Assembly: GCA_030740135.1 (NCBI GenBank)
Contig: JASLXW010000011.1
Span: 1-21,295 of the forward strand
Reading direction: 5' to 3'
Length of the DNA stretch: 21,295 bases
Source of the DNA: Nitrospinota bacterium
GTDB taxonomy: Bacteria; UBA8248; JACPRG01
Shown: in pieces, positions 1,156 through 20,887 of the stretch
Numbering within the stretch: position 1 is the first letter of the stretch
How the letters are laid out: every line of letters starts with the position of its first letter
The notes under the pieces: model-generated
What the model was told of the DNA's origin: nothing
What the model saw: the letters and a program-made list of their open reading frames with translations, nothing else
The model's database searches: none
Made by a program: the position numbers and the translations under genes

Positions 1156-1565
1156 TCAAGAGCTTCTCGAAGCCCCCCGAGTGTCCCGGTACGGTTGCGC
1201 CTTGACGTTCCCCACTTCAAGTGTCCAGGGAACCAGTCCGAGGGTCCGGGCCAATTTCACGAGTGACCGGAGAGCGGCCAAGCGTCGATTGATCGAATTA
1301 GCCGCAAGCCCTCTGTCCACCAGCGCCAACTTGTAGGCCAGTGCAAGCCCGTTCGCGCCACCATGCCCGCACCCAAGAGACGGCGGGCGGCTTCGTCCAG
1401 GGTGTTGGTCTCCGTGAAGGTGCGGAAGTCCTCAAGGTCCTGTCGATAGGCCGCAAGGGTCCGAGGATTCCGCCCCGACAGAAAGGCGTCAATGAGCCGG
1501 GCTGTGTCCGGTCTCGGGTTTGGACGCGGAGACGGATTCAGAATGGAAACGGCGGTCTCATTCAT
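1156..1565 (-). pseudogene. Tyrosine recombinase (phage integrase) N-terminal remnant, frameshifted
   Basis: Starts at ATG 1565 behind GGAGGAAAACCG. The first frame gives MNETAVSILNPSPRP, then LIDAFLSGRNPRTLAAYRQD and LEDFRTFTETNTLDEAARRLL, the SAM-like core-binding domain of XerC/D-type recombinases. Near 1375-1385 the frame changes. The next frame continues the same domain (GHGGANGLALAYKLALVDRG, then SINRRLAALRSLVKLARTLG and YRDTRG) and stops at 1156-1158. A third frame just beyond reads GFEKLLTGPLEGG, which would follow YRDTRG in the family, so a second frame change or small deletion lies near 1170. No catalytic domain (R..H-x-x-R..Y) follows. This is a dead integrase fragment. It sits directly after two other decayed ORFs on the same strand and probably formed one accessory module with them. 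Confidence 0.75.
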
Positions 1566-1623
1566 CGGTTTTCCTCCGGGTCATGTTTCCTCAAATTGAA
1601 CTTATGGGGAACAAAATTCGGGG

Positions 1624-5272: not shown

Positions 5273-5979
5273 GGTCTGTCCTCCTGAATCCTTTCGCCCC
5301 GGCGTCCTCTTCGAAATCGGGAGGCTTGCATCTTCCCGAAAGGTTAGCACAAAGCGGGCGCCAAGGCCCCGTGCAACGCCGGGGGGGGAGGGGGGAGGCG
5401 AATCGTCGGCGCATTCCCGCCCGGGGGAGCTGACTGGATAAGGGTTGCGTCGGGATGCGTTTTGCGAACCCGAGGAGGGAAGGGGAAGGCGGGTGTGGTC
5501 AACCGGCGGTTGGGCTTAATGTCTCCAGATGTAATTCAACGCAAGACCGAATACGAACGCAAAGGCGATGAATCCAAAGAAGGGTCAGAACGCCGGTCCT
5601 TATTCTTGCGCCTGGCTCGACTCGAAGCCCTGCCGCGGTTTCGCGAGGGCCTTTTCTTTGCGTTGGGTCTCGAATGGCCCGTGGAAGGGGAATTCGATCG
5701 GTTTCGGTTGCGAGGCGCCATGTGCGTTCGACTCATTGTTCAGGTCAACGTCCGGCCGCGTGAAAAATCGACGAAACCAAATACCGGGATGTCACATCAA
5801 CCCAAAGTTAAGATATGTCGCCAAGGGACGGGGGCCAACGCGTGATTGCGGATAAGCCAAAAAATTTCTATCGCAAATCCAGATCGCAAGCCGACGGCGA
5901 AACAGGTGATGGAGTGTTCTTTTGATTTTGCCGCGCCAGGAGGCTTCAAGCGCGACGCCCTTCTTTCCGTTTCACGGAA
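5273..5979. other. Long stretch without a supportable gene
   Basis: Seven hundred bases between two minus-strand genes. Plus-strand frames are open across 5462-5845 and 5568-5855, but neither has a ribosome site, family motif or the codon pattern of its neighbours. On the minus strand a 22-codon hydrophobic piece ends at about 5520 (PFFGFIAFAFVFGLALNYIW) and is preceded by a stop, so it may be a C-terminal scrap of a membrane protein. The part from 5740 to 5940 is less GC-rich than the genes around it. A G-rich tract lies at 5382-5398. Confidence 0.4.
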
Positions 5980-7092
5980 TCAAAACCGGCCCTGCTTCAG
6001 GGGGGCCTCGACTTCCTTTCGCAATCGCGATATCCAGGCGCATAAAACACGGTTCGAAAGGACGGCGGGGAGCGAGCGGACGATCATCCGGTAAACCCAC
6101 CGGCGGCTGACCTTCGAGGGCCTGTCCGGATCCAGCCAGGCCTCATTGCGCGCCAGGTCGGCCAGGGTTGCGAGGCCGATCAGGATCGGCCAAAGTGCCC
6201 CGAGGCGAAGGCGCGGGCATCGTCGGGGGATCGCCAGGAGGTATTCTTCCGCCGCCGCGTAGTGCCCGAGAGCCGTCTCGATCCATCCGGACAGAACCGG
6301 GCGGGCCTTCTCGGCGGCGGACGGATTGAGCAGGTCTTGCGGGGAGATCCCCGCGCCGGAAAGCTCGATCTCCGGCAGGTAGCAGCGGCCGATCCGAAGG
6401 TCTTTCGGGACGTCCCGGAGGACATTGGTCAACTGAAGGGCCTTCCCGAATCGCATGCCGATTTCCGACATCCGCTCCGCGTCCCAGGATTTCAAGCCCC
6501 GGGCGCGCGCCATGCTCATCGCCGTCCAGAACTCGCCCACGCACCCGGCCACGTAATAGATGTACCGGTCCAGGTCCGCTTCTTCCCGGAACGCTTCGAT
6601 CCGCCCGGAGTCCTCCGGGGGAAACGTGGTCAGATCGGTCTCCATCCCGAGGGTGAGCCGCACGACGACCGAGCGGACGCGGCCGCGATCGTTTTCGTCG
6701 GCGCCTTCGAGCATCGAGAACGCCTTGGGAAGGGAGGACAGCAACTCGACCTCCTCGGGCGTGGATTGTCTTTTCAGGAGCGCTTGCTGAATTTCGCGAA
6801 GCGCCGACGCCTTCGCCGGTCCGTACACCTGCGCCCGGAAGGCCCGCAGACGGCCCAGGCGCTCGGCGGGCGGGAGGATGCGCGTATCGGCGATGGTGTC
6901 GGCGGCGCGGGCGAGCAGGTAGGCCAGACCCACGGGCCCCCGCAGACCCGCCGGCAGGACGCGCAACGTCAGATAGAAAGACCTCGACACGCGGCGCAGA
7001 AGGTCCGTCAGCAGGCGCTCCCGGTCACGGGGCGAAACGAGCGGCAGCGCTTCTTCCACGCCGGTCTCGGGGGCCTTTTCCGTTTCAACCAT
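5980..7092 (-). CDS. Squalene/phytoene synthase-family enzyme (head-to-head prenyl synthase)
   Basis: 370 residues. Both aspartate-rich motifs for the Mg-diphosphate substrates are present: A-D65-TIA-D69 in LARAADTIADT, and N-V-L-R-D227-VPK-D231 in QLTNVLRDVPKDL followed by GRCYLP. The segments SRSFYLTLRVLPAGLRGPVG and YYVAGCVGEFWTAM are also typical of the squalene/phytoene synthase family. Such enzymes join two farnesyl or geranylgeranyl diphosphates to squalene, dehydrosqualene or phytoene. The length and the Y-x-A-G-x-V-G segment resemble squalene synthases more than the shorter HpnC/HpnD proteins, and no C-terminal membrane anchor is seen. No hopanoid or carotenoid genes are near, so it may supply a pathway encoded elsewhere. 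The ribosome site is weak. Its promoter region is shared with the divergent isochorismatase gene. Confidence 0.88.
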   Translation of the reverse strand: MVETEKAPETGVEEALPLVSPRDRERLLTDLLRRVSRSFYLTLRVLPAGLRGPVGLAYLLARAADTIADTRILPPAERLGRLRAFRAQVYGPAKASALREIQQALLKRQSTPEEVELLSSLPKAFSMLEGADENDRGRVRSVVVRLTLGMETDLTTFPPEDSGRIEAFREEADLDRYIYYVAGCVGEFWTAMSMARARGLKSWDAERMSEIGMRFGKALQLTNVLRDVPKDLRIGRCYLPEIELSGAGISPQDLLNPSAAEKARPVLSGWIETALGHYAAAEEYLLAIPRRCPRLRLGALWPILIGLATLADLARNEAWLDPDRPSKVSRRWVYRMIVRSLPAVLSNRVLCAWISRLRKEVEAPLKQGRF

Positions 7093-9279: not shown

Positions 9280-9308
9280 CGGGGGGGCTCCAGAGCGGAG
9301 CCCCCCCG
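9280..9308 (+). terminator. Strong GC hairpin after the binding-protein gene
   Basis: CGGGGGGGCTCC (9280-9291) and GGAGCCCCCCCG (9297-9308) pair perfectly over 12 bp around the loop AGAGC. It lies 70 bases after the stop codon, where a terminator would be expected. The following bases TGTCTT are only partly U-rich, so termination may be inefficient or the hairpin may mainly stabilise the 3' end of the mRNA. Confidence 0.55.
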
Positions 9309-9490
9309 TGTCTTCACGCGGGGCGGCCCCGTCCTCCGGGTCATCCGAGCGGTTGAGAGAACTTTTGAGGGCGTACGGTTGTCGAATTCAAGGAACGCGC
9401 GCCCCACGGATAAAGGAAAGGAAAACTCGAGGACGGACCTCACCCCTTACCCGAAGGAAATAGATGCGAGCCGGCAAAGAACATCGTCCA

Positions 9491-9519
9491 TTGCGATCGT
9501 GCAGGGAGTTGTCTAGGAT
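9491..9519 (+). promoter_or_regulatory. Candidate sigma-70 promoter for the DsbA-like gene
   Basis: TTGCGA (9491-9496), a 17-base spacer and TAGGAT (9514-9519) match the -35 and -10 consensus at four of six positions each. It is placed about 60 bases before the start codon at 9578. The rest of the 9309-9577 gap shows nothing else that I can name. Confidence 0.4.
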
Positions 9520-9577
9520 TGATCGTCGGCTCAATCCTTTTCAAATCCGGTGGGTGGACTTTCGGGAGAGGAACTCA

Positions 9578-10178
9578 ATGGCCGACGGACGAGAAGAAAT
9601 CCTGGAATATTCCGACTACACCTGACCGTATTGTTGCATCGCCGTCCGGGGGATGGCGCAGGTCGAGAAGGAAACCGGAGTCAAAGTCCGGTGGGTTCCC
9701 TGGGAGGGGCGTCCGGAGGGCGTTTCGTTCCTGGATCGGACGCCGGAAGAGGCGCGAGAGATCCTCGCCAAGCACAAGGCCGTGGGCGCAAGATACGGCG
9801 TGGACCTGATCTTCCCCTGGAAGAAGTGCCGGACCCGCCTGGCCCATCAGGCGACGCTTTTCGCCCGGGATCACGGCCGGATGGAGGAGTTTCGTGACGC
9901 CGTTTACGAGGCCCGGTATCAGCAAGACCTGGACATCGGCGATCCCGGGATCCTGCATGTCGATCGGCGAGCGGGTCGGCTTGGACGCGGCGGCCCTGCG
10001 TGAAGCCCTCGACGTCGAGACCTACGAAGGGGAGCTGGATGAGCTCAGGCGGCGGGGAGAAGAGCGGGGCGTGACGGGCATCTCCACGTACGTCATGGAC
10101 GGGAAGACTTACTGGGGTTCCGATTCGACGGATGAAGTCCTCGAAGCCATCGCGAATCGGGGCCGGCCCTCAACCTGA
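9578..10178 (+). CDS. DsbA/FrnE-like thioredoxin-fold oxidoreductase with in-frame TGA at the first redox-cysteine position (putative selenoprotein); one frame change near 9956
   Basis: ATG 9578 follows GGGAGAGG with 6-nt spacing. The frame reads MADGREEILEYSDYT, then TGA (9623-9625, codon 16), then PYCCIAVRGMAQVEKETGVK and VRWVPWEGRPEG. In the DsbA/FrnE family this place is S-D-x-x-C-P-W-C-Y-I-G, so the TGA replaces the first cysteine of C-x-x-C. After the TGA homology continues with KKCRTRLAHQATLFARDHGR, FRDAVYEARYQQDLDIGDPG and IL. An extra base (probably C9956) then shifts the frame to MSIGERVGLDAAALREALDV, GVTGISTYVMDGKTYWGSDS and a stop at 10176-10178. With both sites resolved the protein has 199 residues, normal for FrnE-like proteins. 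There is no signal peptide, so it should act in the cytoplasm as a thiol or selenol redox enzyme. Two readings remain: a U-P-Y-C selenoprotein with an indel error, or a decaying gene. The Tat-signal gene follows 41 bases later. Confidence 0.72.
9623..9664 (+). promoter_or_regulatory. Putative bacterial SECIS element after the in-frame TGA
   Basis: GACC (9624-9627, including the last two bases of the TGA) can pair with GGTC (9661-9664). Further in, TGC (9635-9637) pairs with GCA (9658-9660), and GCCGTCC (9641-9647) pairs with GGATGGC (9651-9657) with one G-U, closing a GGG loop (9648-9650). ATC (9638-9640) is left as a bulge containing a U; alternatively C9640 pairs with G9658. The loop begins 22 nt after the TGA. 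Known bacterial SECIS hairpins lie directly after the UGA, have a small apical loop with G in its first positions, and often a bulged U in the upper stem. The fold was made by eye. Confidence 0.5.
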
Positions 10179-10219
10179 AAGCGGGTCCCATTTTCCCGGA
10201 CCTTTTGGAGACGCCCACA

Positions 10220-11617
10220 ATGAAGCCCTACGGCGCTCAATCTCAACGGCCGCGCAGAGTCACCCGCCGGACCTTCCTGAAGTCCGTTGCCGGGGGCGCG
10301 GCCTCGGCCGGCCTGTTCGGCGGATGCGCCCCTGTTCCCCTGCAAGTCAAGAAGGCCCTCACCCCCGCGGCCAAGCGGGCCCTTGTTCAAAGACACGCCC
10401 CAATCCTCTGGTTTCACGAAAGCGATTACTTCCTCCCCGTCGGCGTGGAGACCCTCTTTCACCGATCGAACGTCATTTGGCGCAGGCTGAACGGCAGCCC
10501 TTTCAGGATGCTGAAGAACCTGGGCGAGTTGAACGCCCTTCTCCGGGACCCGGCCCACCGCGGCGAGAACGTCTTCGGCAGCTCGCTCGACCTGGAATCC
10601 CTGGGGATGAGGAATTTCACCGTCGAGCCCCACGTGCGACGCGCCTTCGACATCCGGGGACAGGGACCCGAAAGCGTCAGGGAAGCCGCCCGGAAGATTC
10701 TGGCCGCCCGCTATCCCAAGGGGGGCGTCCGCTCCAAGGTCCCGCCTCCGCCCTACGTCCCCAGGATCTATGCCCGCGTGGTCGAGGGCGTCGAGGTGGA
10801 CAACCGCTTCGTCCGCGCGGGCCTCTACGATATCGTTCAGTATTTCTTTTTCTTCCTTTACAACGACTTCTGGAACCAACACGAGGGGGACTGGGACGCG
10901 ACGGTCCAGGTGCTCATCCGGCGGGATGGGGGCGACACCTACGTGACCCAATCTTTCCACTACGAAGACTGGCTCATGGGTTATCCGAAAAAGCTGCCTG
11001 ATTTCCAGAAGTGGCTGGTCCTTTGGCCGAACACCTCATCACAGATCGACGCTTACGCCAAGCGAACGGACCCGCTGGCCGTCTATCGGCTCAAGACCCA
11101 TCCCATGTCCTTCATCGTGAAAGGGGGCCACGGCGCTTACCCCACGCCCGGTTTCGCCCTCTTCGAGGGGCGTGTGCCGAAGATCCGAATTGGGGGCTTC
11201 AAGCTCGGCGGGGACAACGTCATCGCCGCCGCCGACGAGCGCGTTGTCGGCCGATTTTGTCTGGCGCCCGGGTGGTCCGTGCCACGGAGGATGGTGGAGC
11301 GCTTTCTGGTCTTTTCGGGCGTCCGCTCCGAGGATCTGGAATACGTGGGCTATCCCCGGTCAGCGATAGAGATTCTTGAGAATCAACCCTGGTTCGGGTT
11401 CAAGGGCCAGTGGGGAGAGCGGGTTCCGAAGGCGGGCTGGTCGGGGCCTCCCGGCCCCGCTTTCGTATCGAGGTGGGACCCTTCGGACCCGTCCCGCTAC
11501 AACGCGCATCTGGAACGCGCCAACGATTTCACGCACCTTTTCCAGAAGATCTCGCGCTTCACCCATGTCGTTCGGGAGACCGACAAGGGGGAATCGGGTT
11601 CGACCTTTCGGGATTGA
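10220..11617 (+). CDS. Tat-signal, Vps62-related (DUF946-like) exported protein
   Basis: 465 residues from ATG 10220 (GGAG 10 nt upstream; a TTG five codons earlier is possible). The N-terminus has a twin-arginine motif, T-R-R-T-F-L-K, then a hydrophobic stretch ending LFGGC, close to a lipobox, so it may be a Tat-exported lipoprotein. The mature part starts HAPILWFHESDYFLPVGVET and has QYFFFFLYNDFWNQHEGDWD followed by ATVQVLI, a tract YVTQSFHYEDW, and KTHPMSFIVKGGHGAYPTPG. This N-x-H-E-G-D-W-E/D plus G-x-H-x-x-Y pattern is typical of the Vps62-related family, known from fungi, plants and scattered bacteria, with no settled biochemical role. It may be a metal-dependent or carbohydrate-active fold, but I cannot say. 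It lies 41 bases after the DsbA-like gene and may be co-transcribed with it. Confidence 0.78.
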   Translation: MKPYGAQSQRPRRVTRRTFLKSVAGGAASAGLFGGCAPVPLQVKKALTPAAKRALVQRHAPILWFHESDYFLPVGVETLFHRSNVIWRRLNGSPFRMLKNLGELNALLRDPAHRGENVFGSSLDLESLGMRNFTVEPHVRRAFDIRGQGPESVREAARKILAARYPKGGVRSKVPPPPYVPRIYARVVEGVEVDNRFVRAGLYDIVQYFFFFLYNDFWNQHEGDWDATVQVLIRRDGGDTYVTQSFHYEDWLMGYPKKLPDFQKWLVLWPNTSSQIDAYAKRTDPLAVYRLKTHPMSFIVKGGHGAYPTPGFALFEGRVPKIRIGGFKLGGDNVIAAADERVVGRFCLAPGWSVPRRMVERFLVFSGVRSEDLEYVGYPRSAIEILENQPWFGFKGQWGERVPKAGWSGPPGPAFVSRWDPSDPSRYNAHLERANDFTHLFQKISRFTHVVRETDKGESGSTFRD

Positions 11618-11757: not shown

Positions 11758-13004
11758 TTATCGGGATGCGACTATGACGGCCGAGACGCGCGATCCGTTT
11801 GTCGGCGTCCCGTTCGTTTCGGGTTGTTGATTGCCGCCCATCATTCGGATGAAATTGCCGAGAACGTGAAGGTCGAACTGGCCGGGCCTGTCTCTCGACA
11901 TGTGATTGAGGGCCTCGAAGGCGGTGTGGTCCCGTGGCGATAAGGCTGCGGGGTTGTCATGGTGTCGAAGCTCCCGCAGATGGCGCAGACCTGGGCGATG
12001 AGGGGGATTCGATGTTGAAATAAGCCGCGAGGATAGCCTTGGCCGTCGACCCGCTCGTGATGGTTCAGAACGATGTCAACCGCAAGTGGATAGTCGCATC
12101 CCGCCTCTTTGAGAACATTCACGCCATGCAACGGAATTTGTTGGATGATCTTGCGCTCCAGGGGGTTCAGCGTGGAGCGTTGGTTCAATAAGTCCTTCGA
12201 GACCACAAGCTCTCCGATGTCGTGGCTGAGAAATCCCAAGGCAATCTCCTTGAGGTCGCATTCCGAATACCCCGGAAGGAAATTGTGAATGTAGCTCAGG
12301 CCGAATAGACAAACGTTGAGGGCGTGGGCGTACGCTCGAGGGTCCGTCTGGGCCAGCCGGAGAAGAGAAAAAGCCGCCTTCCAATCCTGCTGAATCAAAT
12401 CGAGCGCCTGCTCGGCGATAGGAAGAACGAGCATCGCGTTCTCGCCGCCTTCTTCGGAAATCCGCCGGAACACGTCGTCCAGGCGCTCTGTCGCGAAAGA
12501 GAAAAATAAGGGCACCTTCTCCCGGGCGTCTTTTTTGGGATCGGACAGCAGGCGGTTGATCGTCTGCTCGGTTTCAGCGGCGTACAGGGCATAGTCCTTC
12601 GCCTGGACGTAGATCGACCCTTTGGATTGCCGTTTAATTTTTTTCTGAAGGTTCTCGCTGAGCCGGCTGCCTTTGGAAACCAGGAGGGAATAACCCTTTT
12701 CGGAATCCGAATGGATGTAAATTGGAAATGGAAGGAGCGGAAACGCGGCGACCAGACTCATTTGAATCGGCCGGAGCTTGCCGAGGTCGAGATTCGGTTC
12801 GGGTTGATCCGTCGGGTTTTCCAAGGCTATCCCCACGGAATCGTCCTCGTGCCCGATCAGCTCGTACATCTCGGCATCCGTCAGCCTTTTTGTGCTTGGG
12901 CGCACCATTTTTATCTTTATCGGTTCACCGGCCCCATCTCTTAAGGCCTGAAGTGAACGCGGGGGTTTGGTGTAGGACACGTTCCCGAATTCCGGACGCC
13001 GCAT
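11758..13004 (-). pseudogene. HD-GYP domain protein (c-di-GMP phosphodiesterase type) with a late frameshift
   Basis: The main frame runs from 13004 to 11841 (387 codons). Residues 80-150 (VAAFPLLPFPIYIHSDSEKG, RLSENLQKKIKRQSKGSIYV) resemble the N-terminal sensory region common in HD-GYP proteins. The HD-GYP domain follows: H227, S-H261-D262-I-G-E265, H293 in PLHGVNVLKEAG, and H315-H316-E-R-V-D320-G-Q-G-Y-P. The GYP signature is intact, but the usual lysine of HDIGK is glutamate. After TPQPYRHG the reading frame changes near 11915: the neighbouring frame continues TAFEALNHMSRDRPGQFDLH and VLGNFIRMMGGNQQPE to a stop at 11758-11760, as the family requires. The break removes only the last helices, so partial activity or an indel error are both possible. 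The start is uncertain: ATG 13004 has no clear ribosome site, nor does the in-frame ATG at 12908. Confidence 0.75.
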
Positions 13005-16587: not shown

Positions 16588-16745
16588 CTTTTCGGAGATA
16601 AGGGGGGTGTTGGCCGATTTGTGACCCCCACGGGTCGATCGCCGCCCCCTGAAAGCGCCTCCGCGGAGGATCGGGCGTCTCGCCGCTCGATCTCCGCCAA
16701 AGCGCGCGTCTTTCAGCCATTCCTCTCGGTTTGGAGAGCATATTG

Positions 16746-19034
16746 ATGACGACGGCGATCCGAAAGCGGCTTCCGAGCAACGACGGCCTCCAGAAGGTCA
16801 CCGGAGCCGCGAAATACGCGGACGATTTCTACCTCCCCGGCATGTTGTACGGGAAGGTCCTCCGAAGCCCCCACGCCCACGCCCGCATCGTGCGCGTCAA
16901 CGCGGACCGGGCGCTTGCGCTCTCCGGCGTCCGCGCCGTGGTCTTCGGCCGGGACACCCCGGGCATCAAGTACGGGACCATCCCCGACGAGTACGGTCTG
17001 GCCATCGATAAGGTCCGCTTCATCGGGGACGAGGTGGCGGCCGTGGCCGCCGTGGACGAGGAGACCGCCGAGGCCGCCCTGGCGCACATCGACGTCGAGT
17101 ACGAGGTCCTCCCCGCCGTTCAGGATCCCGTCAAGGCCATGCGGGAGGGCGCGCCTGTCATCCACGAGCCCAACGACGACATCTACGACGCCGCCCGGAA
17201 CATCTCGCTCCGGACCCACCTGACGTACGGGGACGTGGAGAAGGGATTCGCCGAGGCGGATCACGTTTTCGAGCACTCCTTCGAGACCCAGCTCGTCAAC
17301 CACGCCGCCATCGAGCCCCACGCCACAGTGGCCGAGTACGACCCGGTCGGGAAAATCACGGTCTGGTCCTCGTGCCAGGCGCCCTTCCTGATCCGGAGCA
17401 ACATGGCGAAGACGCTCCAGATGCCCTTGACGCGCGTCCGGGTCATCAAGCCCAAGGTGGGCGGGGCGTTCGGTGGCAAGCGCGAGATGATGGCCAACGA
17501 TTTCTGCTCCGCGTTCCTGGCCATGAAGACCGGCCGTCCGGTCAAGGTGACCTATACGCGCGAGGAGGTGTTCTCGACCACGCGCCAGCGCCACCCCACG
17601 AAGATCACCCTCAAGACCGGGGTGACGAACGACGGCCGGTTGGTCGCGAAAGACTGCACGATGATCATGGAGAACGGCGCCTACAACGGAAGAGGCCCGG
17701 ACATCCTGGCGTCCTGTCCCAACTACATCACTGTCCTCTACCGCACGCCGAACATCCACTTCGACGGCTACCTGGTCTATACCAACAACCCGCCGGGCAG
17801 CGCCTTCCGGGGATTCGGGAGCCCGCAGATGCGCTTCGCCGACGACAGCCAGATGGACATCATCGCGACGGAAATCGGGATGGACCCGGTCGAGCTCCGG
17901 CGCATCAACGTCCGGGAGGAAGGCGACGTCACGCCCAACAAGGCCATCATCACCTCGTGCGGGTTGCGGGAGTGCCTGGAAAAGGCGAGCGAGGCGACGG
18001 ACTTCCAGCGCCAGTGGGGCAAGCTGCCCTTCGGCCACGGGATCGGCCTCGCCTGCGGTCACCACACCTGCGGATTCAAGTCGCTGCTGCCGCACGACTC
18101 TTCGGCCGCGACGGTGAAGCTCAACGACGATGGGACGGCCAATGTCCTGACGGGCGCCTCGGACGTGGGGCAGGGCTCGGACTCGGTCCTCGCCATGATC
18201 GCCGCCGAGGAGCTCGGCATTCCCTATCACCGGATCGAGATGACGACCGCCGACACCGAGGTCACCCCGATGGACCTGGGCTCCTACGCGAGCCGCGTCA
18301 CCTTCATCGCCGGCAACGCCGTGAAGCGCGCGGCGGCGGACGCCAAGGAGCAGCTCCTCGACGCGGCGGCGGACCTGCTCGAAGCGGCCCGCGAGGACAT
18401 CGTCATCGAGAACGGGACGGTCCGGGTCGGATCGGCCCCCGAGCGCAGCGCCACGGTCGAGGAGGTCATCCGGCACAACTTCCTGCATGTGGCGGGCGTC
18501 CCCATCGTGGGCCGGGGGGCCTACAACCCCCCCACCGACCGCATCAACCGCGAGACGGGCGTCGGGAACCCTTCGCTGGCGTACAGCTTCGGCGCGCAGG
18601 TGGCGGAGGTGAAGGTGGATTTGGAGTCCGGCCGCGTGAAGGTGGTCCGGATGACGAGCGCCATCGACTGCGGTGTCGCCCTCAACCCCACAGCGGTGGA
18701 AGGGCAAGTCGACGGTTCCGTCTCGGGCGGCATCGGCCAGGCCCTGATGGAAGGGTTCGATACGAAGGGCGGTCTGATGTTGAACCCCTCTTTGCTGGAG
18801 TATCGGCTGCCCCAGGTGTCGGATATGCCGGAGATGGAGACCCACATCGTCGAGTCCCGGGAGGAGGAGGGGCCTTTCGGCGCCAAGGGCGTCGGCGAGT
18901 TCGTCCAGATCCCCACGGCCGCGGCCATCGCCAACGCCGTTTATGACGCCATCGGGGTCCGCATCTACGACCTTCCCATCACGCCCGACAAGGTCCTCGC
19001 CGCCCTGGGCGAGAAAAAGGGCGCCCGCTCATGA
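16746..19034 (+). CDS. Xanthine dehydrogenase-family molybdopterin-binding (large) subunit
   Basis: 762 residues from ATG 16746 (GGAG 10 nt upstream). The order is that of the separate large subunit: an N-terminal a/b hammerhead domain (KVTGAAKYADDFYLPGMLYG, then VRFIGDEVAAVAAVDEETAE) and the molybdopterin-binding part with KPKVGGAFGGKRE (about 236-246), R355-G-F-G-S-P-Q, TGASDVGQGSDSV, and the catalytic glutamate E718 in GAKGVGEF. The CO-dehydrogenase signature (C-S-F-R loop) is absent; NNPPGSAFRGFG stands there instead, so this is a hydroxylase of N-heterocycles, aldehydes or aromatic CoA esters. The enzyme needs a FAD subunit and a [2Fe-2S] subunit. Only the first codons of a FAD-subunit gene overlap its end, and no Fe-S subunit is in the window, so the complex may be non-functional or complemented from elsewhere. 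Confidence 0.93.
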   Translation: MTTAIRKRLPSNDGLQKVTGAAKYADDFYLPGMLYGKVLRSPHAHARIVRVNADRALALSGVRAVVFGRDTPGIKYGTIPDEYGLAIDKVRFIGDEVAAVAAVDEETAEAALAHIDVEYEVLPAVQDPVKAMREGAPVIHEPNDDIYDAARNISLRTHLTYGDVEKGFAEADHVFEHSFETQLVNHAAIEPHATVAEYDPVGKITVWSSCQAPFLIRSNMAKTLQMPLTRVRVIKPKVGGAFGGKREMMANDFCSAFLAMKTGRPVKVTYTREEVFSTTRQRHPTKITLKTGVTNDGRLVAKDCTMIMENGAYNGRGPDILASCPNYITVLYRTPNIHFDGYLVYTNNPPGSAFRGFGSPQMRFADDSQMDIIATEIGMDPVELRRINVREEGDVTPNKAIITSCGLRECLEKASEATDFQRQWGKLPFGHGIGLACGHHTCGFKSLLPHDSSAATVKLNDDGTANVLTGASDVGQGSDSVLAMIAAEELGIPYHRIEMTTADTEVTPMDLGSYASRVTFIAGNAVKRAAADAKEQLLDAAADLLEAAREDIVIENGTVRVGSAPERSATVEEVIRHNFLHVAGVPIVGRGAYNPPTDRINRETGVGNPSLAYSFGAQVAEVKVDLESGRVKVVRMTSAIDCGVALNPTAVEGQVDGSVSGGIGQALMEGFDTKGGLMLNPSLLEYRLPQVSDMPEMETHIVESREEEGPFGAKGVGEFVQIPTAAAIANAVYDAIGVRIYDLPITPDKVLAALGEKKGARS

Positions 19035-19558: not shown

Positions 19559-20887
19559 TCAAGGTTTCGTCCCGACCGCGCAGTGATGCGGCGCGGCGTA
19601 GAGAAAGGTCCCGTTGGCTTCCGCCCGGTCGAGGGCGGCCCGCCACGCGGCCGCTTCCTCCCGGTCGAGGGCGGGGAGGATCCGGCCATCCAGCACCCGG
19701 GCCCAGTACGATCCGCCGAAGGACGCCGACTGCGGGAGGCTTTTCACTTCCCGCAAGCCCGCCTCGCGAAACCGCCGGTAAAGGCTCGCGTCGGCGCACC
19801 CCCGCTCCTCCACGGGTCCGCGCGGGGCCTGCACCTTCGCTTTCAAATCCCCATCAAGCGGAACGTTCGCCCACCACGGCATGTCCACGGCCCGGACAAT
19901 CACGCCGATCCTCCCCCCCGGTTTGGTCACGCGGACCAGTTCGCCGAGCATCCGGTCCGCGTCGAGCTCCTCCATGACCGTGAGCGAAAGCGTCACGTCG
20001 AAGCGGCCATCGGGAAACTCCAGGTCCTCCGCGCTGCCTTCGCGGAACTCAATGACCTCGCCCAGCTCTTCCTTCCCGGCCAGGTCCACCGCCTCGCGCA
20101 GGAGGTGGCGATTGAGATCCACGCCGACGATCCGGTTTGCGCCCCCGGTCCTCCGGGCCAGCCAGCGGTCAATCACGCCCGTTCCGCATCCCACGTCCAG
20201 AACCGTTTCCCCTTCGCGAAGACGAACCTCCTCCAGGAGGTTTCGGACGATCCCCAGGTACCCGGCCGAGCGGCCGCGCGCCTCCAGGAGGGCGGTGAAG
20301 CCCAGGGCCGCGCCGCCCAGCGTGATTGTGCAAAATCGCTCGTTCAGGCGGGAGATAACGGGCTCCCACTGAGAAGGGGCGAGCATCAGCGGAAGCAGGA
20401 CCAGAGGCGGCCCGGCGCCGCGAACGCGGTAGGAGATTCCGGCAACCTCTCCCTCATCGTCCCCCGAGAGCGTGGGTGTCCCTTCCTCTCCGGCCGCGGG
20501 GGTCCATCCCTTCAGGAACGTCTCCATCGCGGCGGCCGACTCCTCCCCCCGGTCGGTGAAGATGTCGGCCCAGGCGGGACTGAAATAGCCGTCCAGTGTT
20601 TTCAGCCCGGCGTCCGGCAGACCCGCCACGGCGCGCCTCAGGTTTTCCATCGGCGCCCCTTGATCGCCCGTAATCACCAGAAGTCTTGAGGAGATGGAGC
20701 GGACCGCATCCGGGTCGATGCCCGGCGGGCAGATGAGGGTCAGGGAGGCGATGCGATCGGGGTGCGCGCCCGCGAGACCGCTCCAGTCCAGCGCCGAGCG
20801 GGCCGCGAAGTGGGCCCGGCCGATATCGAGACGCCGAAGGACTTGAAGGAGACGTTCCTCGACGGGGAGCTCGGGTACGGAGGTCAT
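19559..20887 (-). CDS. Fusion of degenerate alpha/beta-hydrolase pieces with a class I SAM methyltransferase
   Basis: 442 residues from ATG 20887, overlapping the upstream stop as ATGA. Residues 1-130 look like the middle and end of an alpha/beta hydrolase (AHPDRIASLTLICPPGID, then RLLVITGDQGAPMENLRR), but the nucleophile elbow G-x-S-x-G is replaced by AARSALDWSG, so it should be inactive. Residues 148-200 resemble the start of another hydrolase (GISYRVRGAGPPLVLLPLML, PSQWEPVISRLNERF). From about 205 a methyltransferase domain begins: motif I V-L-D-V-G-C-G-T-G (229-237), acidic end of strand 2 in GVDLN (D257), EGSAEDLEFPDGRFDVTLSL and VTKPGGRIGVIVRAVDMPWW. The C-terminus PHHCAVGTKP closes the domain. 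The acceptor is unknown. The product is cytoplasmic. Confidence 0.85.
   Translation of the reverse strand: MTSVPELPVEERLLQVLRRLDIGRAHFAARSALDWSGLAGAHPDRIASLTLICPPGIDPDAVRSISSRLLVITGDQGAPMENLRRAVAGLPDAGLKTLDGYFSPAWADIFTDRGEESAAAMETFLKGWTPAAGEEGTPTLSGDDEGEVAGISYRVRGAGPPLVLLPLMLAPSQWEPVISRLNERFCTITLGGAALGFTALLEARGRSAGYLGIVRNLLEEVRLREGETVLDVGCGTGVIDRWLARRTGGANRIVGVDLNRHLLREAVDLAGKEELGEVIEFREGSAEDLEFPDGRFDVTLSLTVMEELDADRMLGELVRVTKPGGRIGVIVRAVDMPWWANVPLDGDLKAKVQAPRGPVEERGCADASLYRRFREAGLREVKSLPQSASFGGSYWARVLDGRILPALDREEAAAWRAALDRAEANGTFLYAAPHHCAVGTKP

What the first reader, a model, noticed from the sequence alone, without database searches (positions are those of the whole stretch)
9578..9664. Putative new selenoprotein: DsbA/FrnE-like protein with TGA in place of the first cysteine of C-P-Y-C
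Seen: a good ribosome site, ATG 9578, 15 sense codons ending S-D-Y-T, TGA, then P-Y-C-C and uninterrupted family-like sequence for more than 100 codons. In this family the TGA position is the catalytic cysteine. The bases after the TGA can fold into a hairpin with a GGG loop 22 nt from the TGA, a bulged U and a base pairing that includes the TGA itself, as in bacterial SECIS elements. Known: thioredoxin-fold proteins with U-x-x-C motifs exist and use selenocysteine as a more reactive nucleophile. Inferred: a cytoplasmic selenol oxidoreductase or isomerase. A random nonsense mutation falling exactly on the redox residue is possible but unlikely.
Basis: partly seen in the sequence, partly recalled or inferred. 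Interest (0 to 1): 0.87.

Follow-up and report, generated by a model that had tools for sequence, protein, structure and literature searches.

The report
Selenocysteine-type DsbA/FrnE-like oxidoreductase gene
A bacterial gene for a DsbA-type redox enzyme very probably uses the stop codon TGA to insert selenocysteine at its active site, and database copies of its close relatives appear to be annotated with the active site cut off; this kind of protein is already known.

Summary
ATG 9578 with a good ribosome site, 15 codons, TGA 9623-9625 and P-Y-C-C are there, and the frame stays DsbA-like for 111 codons. All 25 of 25 close database relatives found (55-88% identical) start downstream of the TGA site, as an in-frame TGA makes gene callers do; 18 of 25 distant homologues span it, 16 with Cys. 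In a sister branch, locus L019 shows it in DNA: F-D-Y-I-TGA-P-W-C-Y in a gene open from ATG to stop; the 120 listed sister proteins (of 8000 scored) start just after the site. A model of residues 1-127 puts the TGA residue at the cap of helix 1, best matches Deinococcus FrnE, and puts the annotated start inside that helix. The hairpin after the TGA has a bacterial-SECIS shape but is only moderately unusual (60 of 2000 synonymous recodings as strong). No genome is held, so selA/B/C/D could not be tested. Sec DsbA-like proteins (COG2761/PF01323, UxxC) have been known since 2005: a new member of a known kind, not a new selenoprotein family.

The parts
9564..9573 (+). ribosome-binding site GGGAGAGGAA before ATG 9578
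   Evidence: read directly; by eye, nothing comparable at normal spacing before ATG 9653
9578..9622 (+). N-terminal 15 codons (MADGREEILEYSDYT): strand beta-1 of the thioredoxin fold
   Evidence: strand 7-12 in the model
9623..9625 (+). in-frame TGA read as selenocysteine (U16), place of the nucleophilic Cys of C-P-Y-C
   Evidence: same place in L019
9626..9637 (+). P-Y-C-C: C19 the expected partner of U16; C20 a further Cys
9623..9665 (+). candidate bacterial SECIS: upper stem 9640-9647/9651-9658, loop GGG 9648-9650, basal pairing 9623-9627/9661-9665
9626..9958 (+). DsbA-like coding sequence after the TGA, first part (frame 2)
   Evidence: PF01323 33.5 bits; relatives
9653..9655 (+). ATG (M26), the first start codon after the TGA, where most relatives are annotated to start; lies in the middle of helix 1
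9946..9960 (+). stretch in which the family-like frame changes from frame 2 to frame 3; relatives P0003 and P0017 run through without a change
9960..10178 (+). C-terminal part of the DsbA-like protein in frame 3, stop TGA 10176-10178
   Evidence: PF01323 positions 127-191

Best explanation
A selenoprotein gene. Shown: an ORF with a ribosome site starts at ATG 9578, and its codon 16, TGA, stands at the first Cys of the C-x-x-C of a FrnE-like DsbA-fold protein; by eye the 15 residues before it hold no signal sequence. Inferred: SelB with Sec-tRNA reads this UGA as selenocysteine, steered by the hairpin directly downstream, giving U-P-Y-C-C. The selenol of U16 at the cap of helix 1 attacks disulfides (or other oxidised substrates) in the cytoplasm and forms a selenenylsulfide with C19, which a thiol donor reduces again. 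The frame change near 9946-9960 is either an indel error of the contig or private to this strain. The whole close branch, with two members in MAGs named Nitrospinota, uses Sec at this place (inferred from where their database sequences start).
For: 25 of 25 close relatives (P0003-P0027) start downstream of U16: 16 align to residue 26, 2 to residue 21, 7 later. In the window itself residue 26 is the first start codon after the TGA. Among 25 distant homologues 18 span the site, 16 with Cys and 2 with Ser (Fisher p 5e-8, which treats related rows as independent). L019, DNA of another lineage: ATG, F-D-Y-I-TGA-P-W-C-Y, open to the stop, PF01323 115.8 bits, 7-bp hairpin with its loop 20 nt after the TGA; the 120 listed sister proteins (of 8000 scored) start after the site, 119 of them with a start like [M/V]R-I-E-K-L. 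Two well-supported branches hold most post-TGA starts: the window with 16 rows (100/99) and L019 with 8 rows (100/98). Model pLDDT 87.4: strand 7-12, helix 17-33; best solved match a disulfide oxidoreductase (FrnE) of Deinococcus radiodurans, E 4e-6. TGA ends 10 of 13 whole window ORFs, so it is not generally recoded.
Against: No tRNA-Sec lies in the window, none of the window ORFs scanned with Pfam is a sel gene, and no genome is held, so Sec use by the organism is unproven. DNA of the close relatives was never seen; their starts are indirect evidence and some sit on short contigs (605 bases for P0014). The window hairpin is only in the top 2-3% of stem-loop controls and 9% of recodings match its total energy; in L019, 14 of 2000 recodings but 209 of 3704 codon positions match the stem-loop and the region as a whole folds no better than shuffles (z -0.20, 75 of 200). 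No covariation test was possible. The copy in hand carries a second lesion (the frame change). In the window, P0003 and P0017 the usual cis-Pro is Ser, which could hint at relaxed constraint.
Confidence: 0.88

Rival explanations
1. The gene is a decaying pseudogene: a nonsense mutation at the active-site Cys plus a frameshift.
For: Two lesions in one gene; Ser in place of the cis-Pro; a broken integrase-like gene elsewhere in the window, its PF02899 pieces lying in two frames (weak, 17.7 and 14.4 bits).
Against: 25 of 25 close relatives found lack the part before the TGA while the rest is well conserved, 16 of them aligning to the first start codon after it; L019 has the TGA and is otherwise open; near-identical P0003 and P0017 have no frame change. 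The HD-domain gene 11841-13004 seems, by eye, to change frame near its end, which would fit contig indels, but Pfam does not confirm it.
Confidence: 0.06
2. The TGA is a true stop, and the branch makes a shorter protein from ATG 9653 (M26), having lost the active site.
For: Most of the 25 close relatives are annotated that way (16 align to residue 26), and residues from 26 on are conserved.
Against: M26 lies in the middle of helix 1 (17-33), so strand 1 and half the helix would be missing; by eye no ribosome site at normal spacing before 9653; with the upstream part the family score is 52.6 bits against 25.5 for the stretch from M26 (the two queries also differ slightly at their ends).
Confidence: 0.03
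3. The TGA is a sequencing or assembly error for TGC/TGT.
For: The contig has other apparent frame changes, so base errors are possible.
Against: It would not explain the start pattern of relatives from NCBI, ENA, JGI and other sources.
Confidence: 0.02
4. UGA is read as Cys or Trp throughout in this organism, or simply leaks.
For: None found beyond the in-frame TGA.
Against: TGA ends 10 of 13 whole ORFs of the window.
Confidence: 0.01

Closest known systems
DsbA-like selenoprotein, form 1 (PF01323 / COG2761, UxxC): PMC1088965 (nine Sargasso Sea sequences), PMC2398784 ('DsbA 1', 63 sequences), PMC13188914 Table 1 (NIP15863.1)
   Same: DsbA fold, UGA at the first Cys of C-x-x-C, a SECIS-like hairpin just after it, Cys homologues
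   Different: Their sequences were not at hand, so the distance is unknown and it is not excluded that some belong to this branch; here the motif is U-P-Y-C-C and no close Cys form turned up
FrnE of Deinococcus radiodurans (PDB 5coh, 5cnw, 5cp1, 5xwh, 5co3)
   Same: best solved matches of the window model, DsbA fold with helical insert
   Different: FrnE has Cys, not Sec, and a further C-terminal Cys motif (both recalled, from no call); the window's C-terminal part (9960-10178) holds no Cys
Rcas_1661 family thioredoxin-like (seleno)lipoprotein, NF041057 (listed as DsbG-like, UxxC, in PMC13188914)
   Same: thioredoxin-like, Sec at UxxC
   Different: 3 of 5 proteins of the branch match at 18.8-22.4 bits against a cut-off of 190; that family is named a lipoprotein
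L019 and the 184-aa sister branch (this work)
   Same: DSBA fold, TGA at the same Cys in L019 DNA, post-TGA starts in the 120 listed sister proteins
   Different: U-P-W-C-Y in L019; separate, well-supported branch in the tree; L019 is 26% identical to the window

Membership tests
PF01323 DSBA-like thioredoxin domain | score above the curated cut-off (25.6 bits) | tested here: met
   52.6 bits for the first part, 41.8 for the C-terminal part
PF01323 DSBA-like thioredoxin domain | active site C-x-x-C at the cap of helix 1 | tested here: met
   in the U-x-x-C form: U16-P-Y-C19, helix 17-33 in the model
PF01323 DSBA-like thioredoxin domain | cis-Pro loop (usual in thioredoxin folds, not required by the Pfam model) | tested here: inconclusive
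   Ser in the window's C-terminal part and in 2 of 25 relatives, Pro in 22 of 25, 1 of 25 without a match to the pattern used; loop not modelled
FrnE proper | nearest fold among solved structures | tested here: met
   ranks 1-5 of the Foldseek search, TMq 0.73-0.75, on a model of residues 1-127 only; a sequence search of the PDB instead gave one weak hit, 3gyk, E 0.008
FrnE proper | second, C-terminal Cys motif (recalled) | tested here: not met
   no Cys in the C-terminal part of the window gene; so it is called FrnE-like and not filed as FrnE
DsbA-like selenoprotein form 1 (UxxC) | in-frame UGA at the first Cys | tested here: met
   L019
DsbA-like selenoprotein form 1 (UxxC) | homologues with Cys at the place | tested here: met
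   16 of 25 distant homologues
DsbA-like selenoprotein form 1 (UxxC) | bacterial SECIS directly after the UGA (small apical loop with G) | tested here: inconclusive
   right shape and distance, but 60 of 2000 recodings as strong; no Rfam match; no covariation data
DsbA-like selenoprotein form 1 (UxxC) | selA, selB, selC, selD in the genome | not testable with these tools
   no genome held; close relatives not found in genome contigs
DsbA-like selenoprotein form 1 (UxxC) | sequence kinship to the published examples | not testable with these tools
   published sequences are in figures or named by accession only
NF041057 Rcas_1661 (seleno)lipoprotein | curated cut-off 190 bits | tested here: not met
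   18.8-22.4 bits in 3 of 5 proteins scanned, no match to it in 2, the window's own among them

The most novel reading that the evidence does not exclude
A Sec-only branch of cytoplasmic FrnE-like oxidoreductases, with members in Nitrospinota-named MAGs, in which selenocysteine is fixed rather than alternating with Cys, and in which U16, C19, C20 and the nearly invariant C84 form a selenenylsulfide relay unlike the plain UxxC pair. With the sister branch of L019 it would be a large selenoprotein group that databases hold almost wholly with the active site cut off.
Probability: 0.3. Interest if true: 0.55.

Novelty: new member of a known kind. Interest (0 to 1): 0.4.

Why it matters
It would add a branch to the bacterial selenoproteins, with members in MAGs named Nitrospinota; a search for papers holding 'Nitrospin', 'selenocysteine' and 'selenoprotein' gave none, though four papers holding the first two words were not opened. 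It also shows a simple sign by which more such genes can be found: a family whose database entries all start just after an active-site position. The sister branch (120 listed proteins of 8000 scored) suggests that many DsbA-type proteins in metagenome databases lack their active site by annotation alone.

Tried and rejected
Relatives' DNA in genome contigs: two scans, 63 and 19 pattern stretches, 0 relatives. In viral contigs: profile of the close branch, 11 stretches, 0 relatives; pattern for Y-T-TGA-P-Y/F-C-C, 17 loci, no tblastn match of P0006 or P0030 in any of the 17; sister-branch profile, 1 relative of 8 stretches, L019; D-Y/F-x-TGA-P-W-C pattern, 1 locus, the same contig; P-F-C pattern, 0; D-Y-T-TGA-P-Y/F-C pattern, 3 loci, none DsbA-like by eye. 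Plasmids by tblastn: only homologues under 60% identity, 16 records for P0006 and 234 for P0045; one unannotated hit examined (Caballeronia, L018) has Cys. Plasmids by distant blastn with window 9300-10300: no match. Phages with P0045: 3 records, under 60%. tRNA-Sec in the two viral records G001 and G002: 0 of 1 in each, which says nothing about their hosts. Rfam on the hairpin: no match. PADLOC: no hit for the gene.

Papers: FrnE with selenoprotein, 9 in the listing, none judged from title and abstract to concern bacterial FrnE; Nitrospin with selenocysteine, 4, listing only; with selenoprotein as well, 0; Tectomicrobia and others with selenocysteine, 135, of which 15 listed, none opened; phrases such as 'DsbA selenoprotein', 1, a sea squirt study, listing only. 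Passages seen with no bearing on this branch: PMC9402790, PMC12013277 (DsbA not mentioned in its main text); PMC9312934 repeats the DsbA-like UxxC entry.

An HD-domain gene frame change (11841-13004) was first taken as sure; a Pfam scan of the other-frame piece gave no family, so it is now given as by eye only.

Full report
What is there. The window holds ATG 9578 with ribosome site GGGAGAGGAA, 15 codons ending S-D-Y-T, TGA 9623-9625 and P-Y-C-C. Read through, 9578-10003 matches PF01323 (DSBA) with 52.6 bits. 9626-9958 alone gives 33.5 bits and the part from ATG 9653 gives 25.5, just under the cut-off. The family-like sequence moves to another frame between about 9946 and 9960 and ends at 10178. 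Two near-identical relatives, P0003 and P0017, have no such change; intact copies thus exist. An integrase-like gene near 1159-1580 is broken over two frames (PF02899 positions 15-49 in one, 54-79 in the other, both below the cut-off). The HD-domain gene 11841-13004 also seems to change frame near its end, by eye only. Contig indels or decay can explain these; the data do not decide.

Relatives. A protein search with the read-through product gave 16 proteins, one of them the window's own ORF (P0002); a profile search gave 51. Apart from P0002, 25 are close (P0003-P0027, 55-88% identical to the window). Of these, 25 of 25 begin downstream of the TGA place: 16 align to residue 26 (P0015 and P0016 among them start with residues unlike the family), 2 to residue 21, 1 to 37, 4 to 75, 2 to 102. 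In the window the first start codon after the TGA is residue 26 as well. Of 25 distant homologues, 18 span the site; 16 have Cys and 2 Ser there; 7 do not span it. Two of the close relatives bear the name 'MAG: DsbA family protein [Nitrospinota bacterium]' (P0006, P0021). Their DNA could not be read. Several lie on contigs of about 1 kb or less, so a few starts may be contig ends. The window's own organism is not known.

A second lineage, with DNA. Five of the seven distant proteins that do not span the site (P0037, P0039, P0042, P0043, P0045) form one group. A search with its profile scored 8000 candidates, all under 1e-15, and listed the best 120. Of these 120, 119 start [M/V]R-I-E-K-L or with one letter changed, one (P0169) starts a few residues later, and none has C-x-x-C in its first 25 residues. 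The 7880 not listed were not seen. A scan of viral contigs with this profile gave one relative, L019; by eye the neighbouring ORFs are Mu-like transposition genes. Its DNA reads ATG 5935, F-D-Y-I, TGA 5977-5979, P-W-C-Y and stays open to the stop codon; PF01323 115.8 bits. The first start codon after that TGA is GTG 6001, the point where the sister proteins start (query residue 1 aligns there). So in the two loci whose DNA can be read, the start point of the database relatives is the first start codon after a TGA at the catalytic Cys.

Tree. 47 rows were used: the window, L019, 16 of the 25 close proteins, 8 of the 120 sister proteins, P0028, P0031, and 19 full-length ones. The window falls with the 16 close proteins (100/99), L019 with the 8 sister proteins (100/98); 12 full-length Cys proteins form a third group (97/97). 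The post-TGA label needs 4 changes. P0028 and P0031 carry that label too but may be short for other reasons. Whether Sec arose once or more often is not settled.

Hairpin. Stem 9640-9647/9651-9658, loop GGG starting 22 nt after the TGA, basal pairing that includes the TGA; in L019 a 7-bp stem with its loop 20 nt after the TGA. Controls, window: 7 of 200 shuffles; 60 of 2000 synonymous recodings and 93 of 4311 codon positions with as strong a stem-loop, 181 of 2000 recodings with as low a total energy; 14 of 598 TGA triplets; no excess stability over 9560-9700. L019: 14 of 2000 recodings, 209 of 3704 codon positions, no excess stability over 5940-6020 (z -0.20). My stem-loop criterion (uninterrupted stem of 4 or more pairs, loop 3-14 with G in its first two bases, 16-37 nt from the TGA) is recalled from the published bacterial SECIS model, not taken from a call. 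[quoted passage not shown] So the hairpin supports but does not prove.

Fold and mechanism. A model of residues 1-127 (pLDDT 87.4, 21 sequences) has strand 7-12 and helix 17-33, so residue 16 caps helix 1 and residue 26 lies inside it. The best solved matches are entries of the Deinococcus radiodurans disulfide oxidoreductase FrnE, then SCO1869 and an HCCA isomerase. By sequence alone the only PDB hit was 3gyk, E 0.008, aligned over the C-P-Y-C. By analogy with thioredoxin-fold enzymes (established knowledge), U16 is the nucleophile and C19 resolves it; C20 and the nearly invariant C84 (Ser in P0015 and P0025) may take part, which is speculation. The substrate is unknown. TGA ends 10 of 13 whole ORFs of the window, so it is a stop elsewhere.

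What is known. Sec DsbA-like proteins were found in the Sargasso Sea data (nine sequences, COG2761; passages of PMC1088965), in the GOS data ('DsbA 1' UxxC 63, 'DsbA 2' UxxC 18, 'DsbA 3' UxxV 5; passages of PMC2398784), and are listed in a 2026 review (section 7, part 1 of 3, of PMC13188914). That COG2761 is the FrnE COG is recalled. In NCBIfam the five proteins of the branch scanned had only hits far below cut-off. Kinship to the published sequences could not be tested, so the branch is filed as a new member of a known kind, and it is not excluded that some published sequence belongs to it.

Limits. No genome is held for the window, so selA, selB, selC and selD were not tested. DNA evidence for the TGA rests on the window and L019. 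The window's own copy is not intact.

Noticed in passing
window 11841-13004, minus strand: HD-domain gene that by eye continues in another frame near its 3' end; a Pfam scan of the other-frame piece gave nothing
   Followed up: partly
window 1159-1580, minus strand: Integrase-like gene in pieces: PF02899 positions 15-49 in one frame and 54-79 in another, both below the cut-off; an HTH-like piece lies upstream
   Followed up: partly
P0042, P0045, P0054-P0169: Very large group of about 184-aa DsbA-family proteins; the 120 listed all start right after the active-site position; probably selenoproteins annotated with the site cut off
   Followed up: partly
L019 301-3812 and 5935-6537: Mu-like transposition genes (by eye) in an IMG/VR contig with the Sec-type DsbA gene near its end, perhaps host DNA or cargo beside the element
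   Followed up: partly
window C-terminal part (G-I-S-T-Y in frame 3), P0003, P0017: Ser in place of the cis-Pro that 22 of 25 close relatives keep
   Followed up: partly
window 19559-20887, minus strand: Methyltransferase domain with likeness to arsenite methyltransferase selenoprotein models, far below their cut-offs
   Followed up: no
window 16731-19034: Molybdenum hydroxylase large subunit nearest to 4-hydroxybenzoyl-CoA reductase alpha subunit, below its cut-off
   Followed up: no
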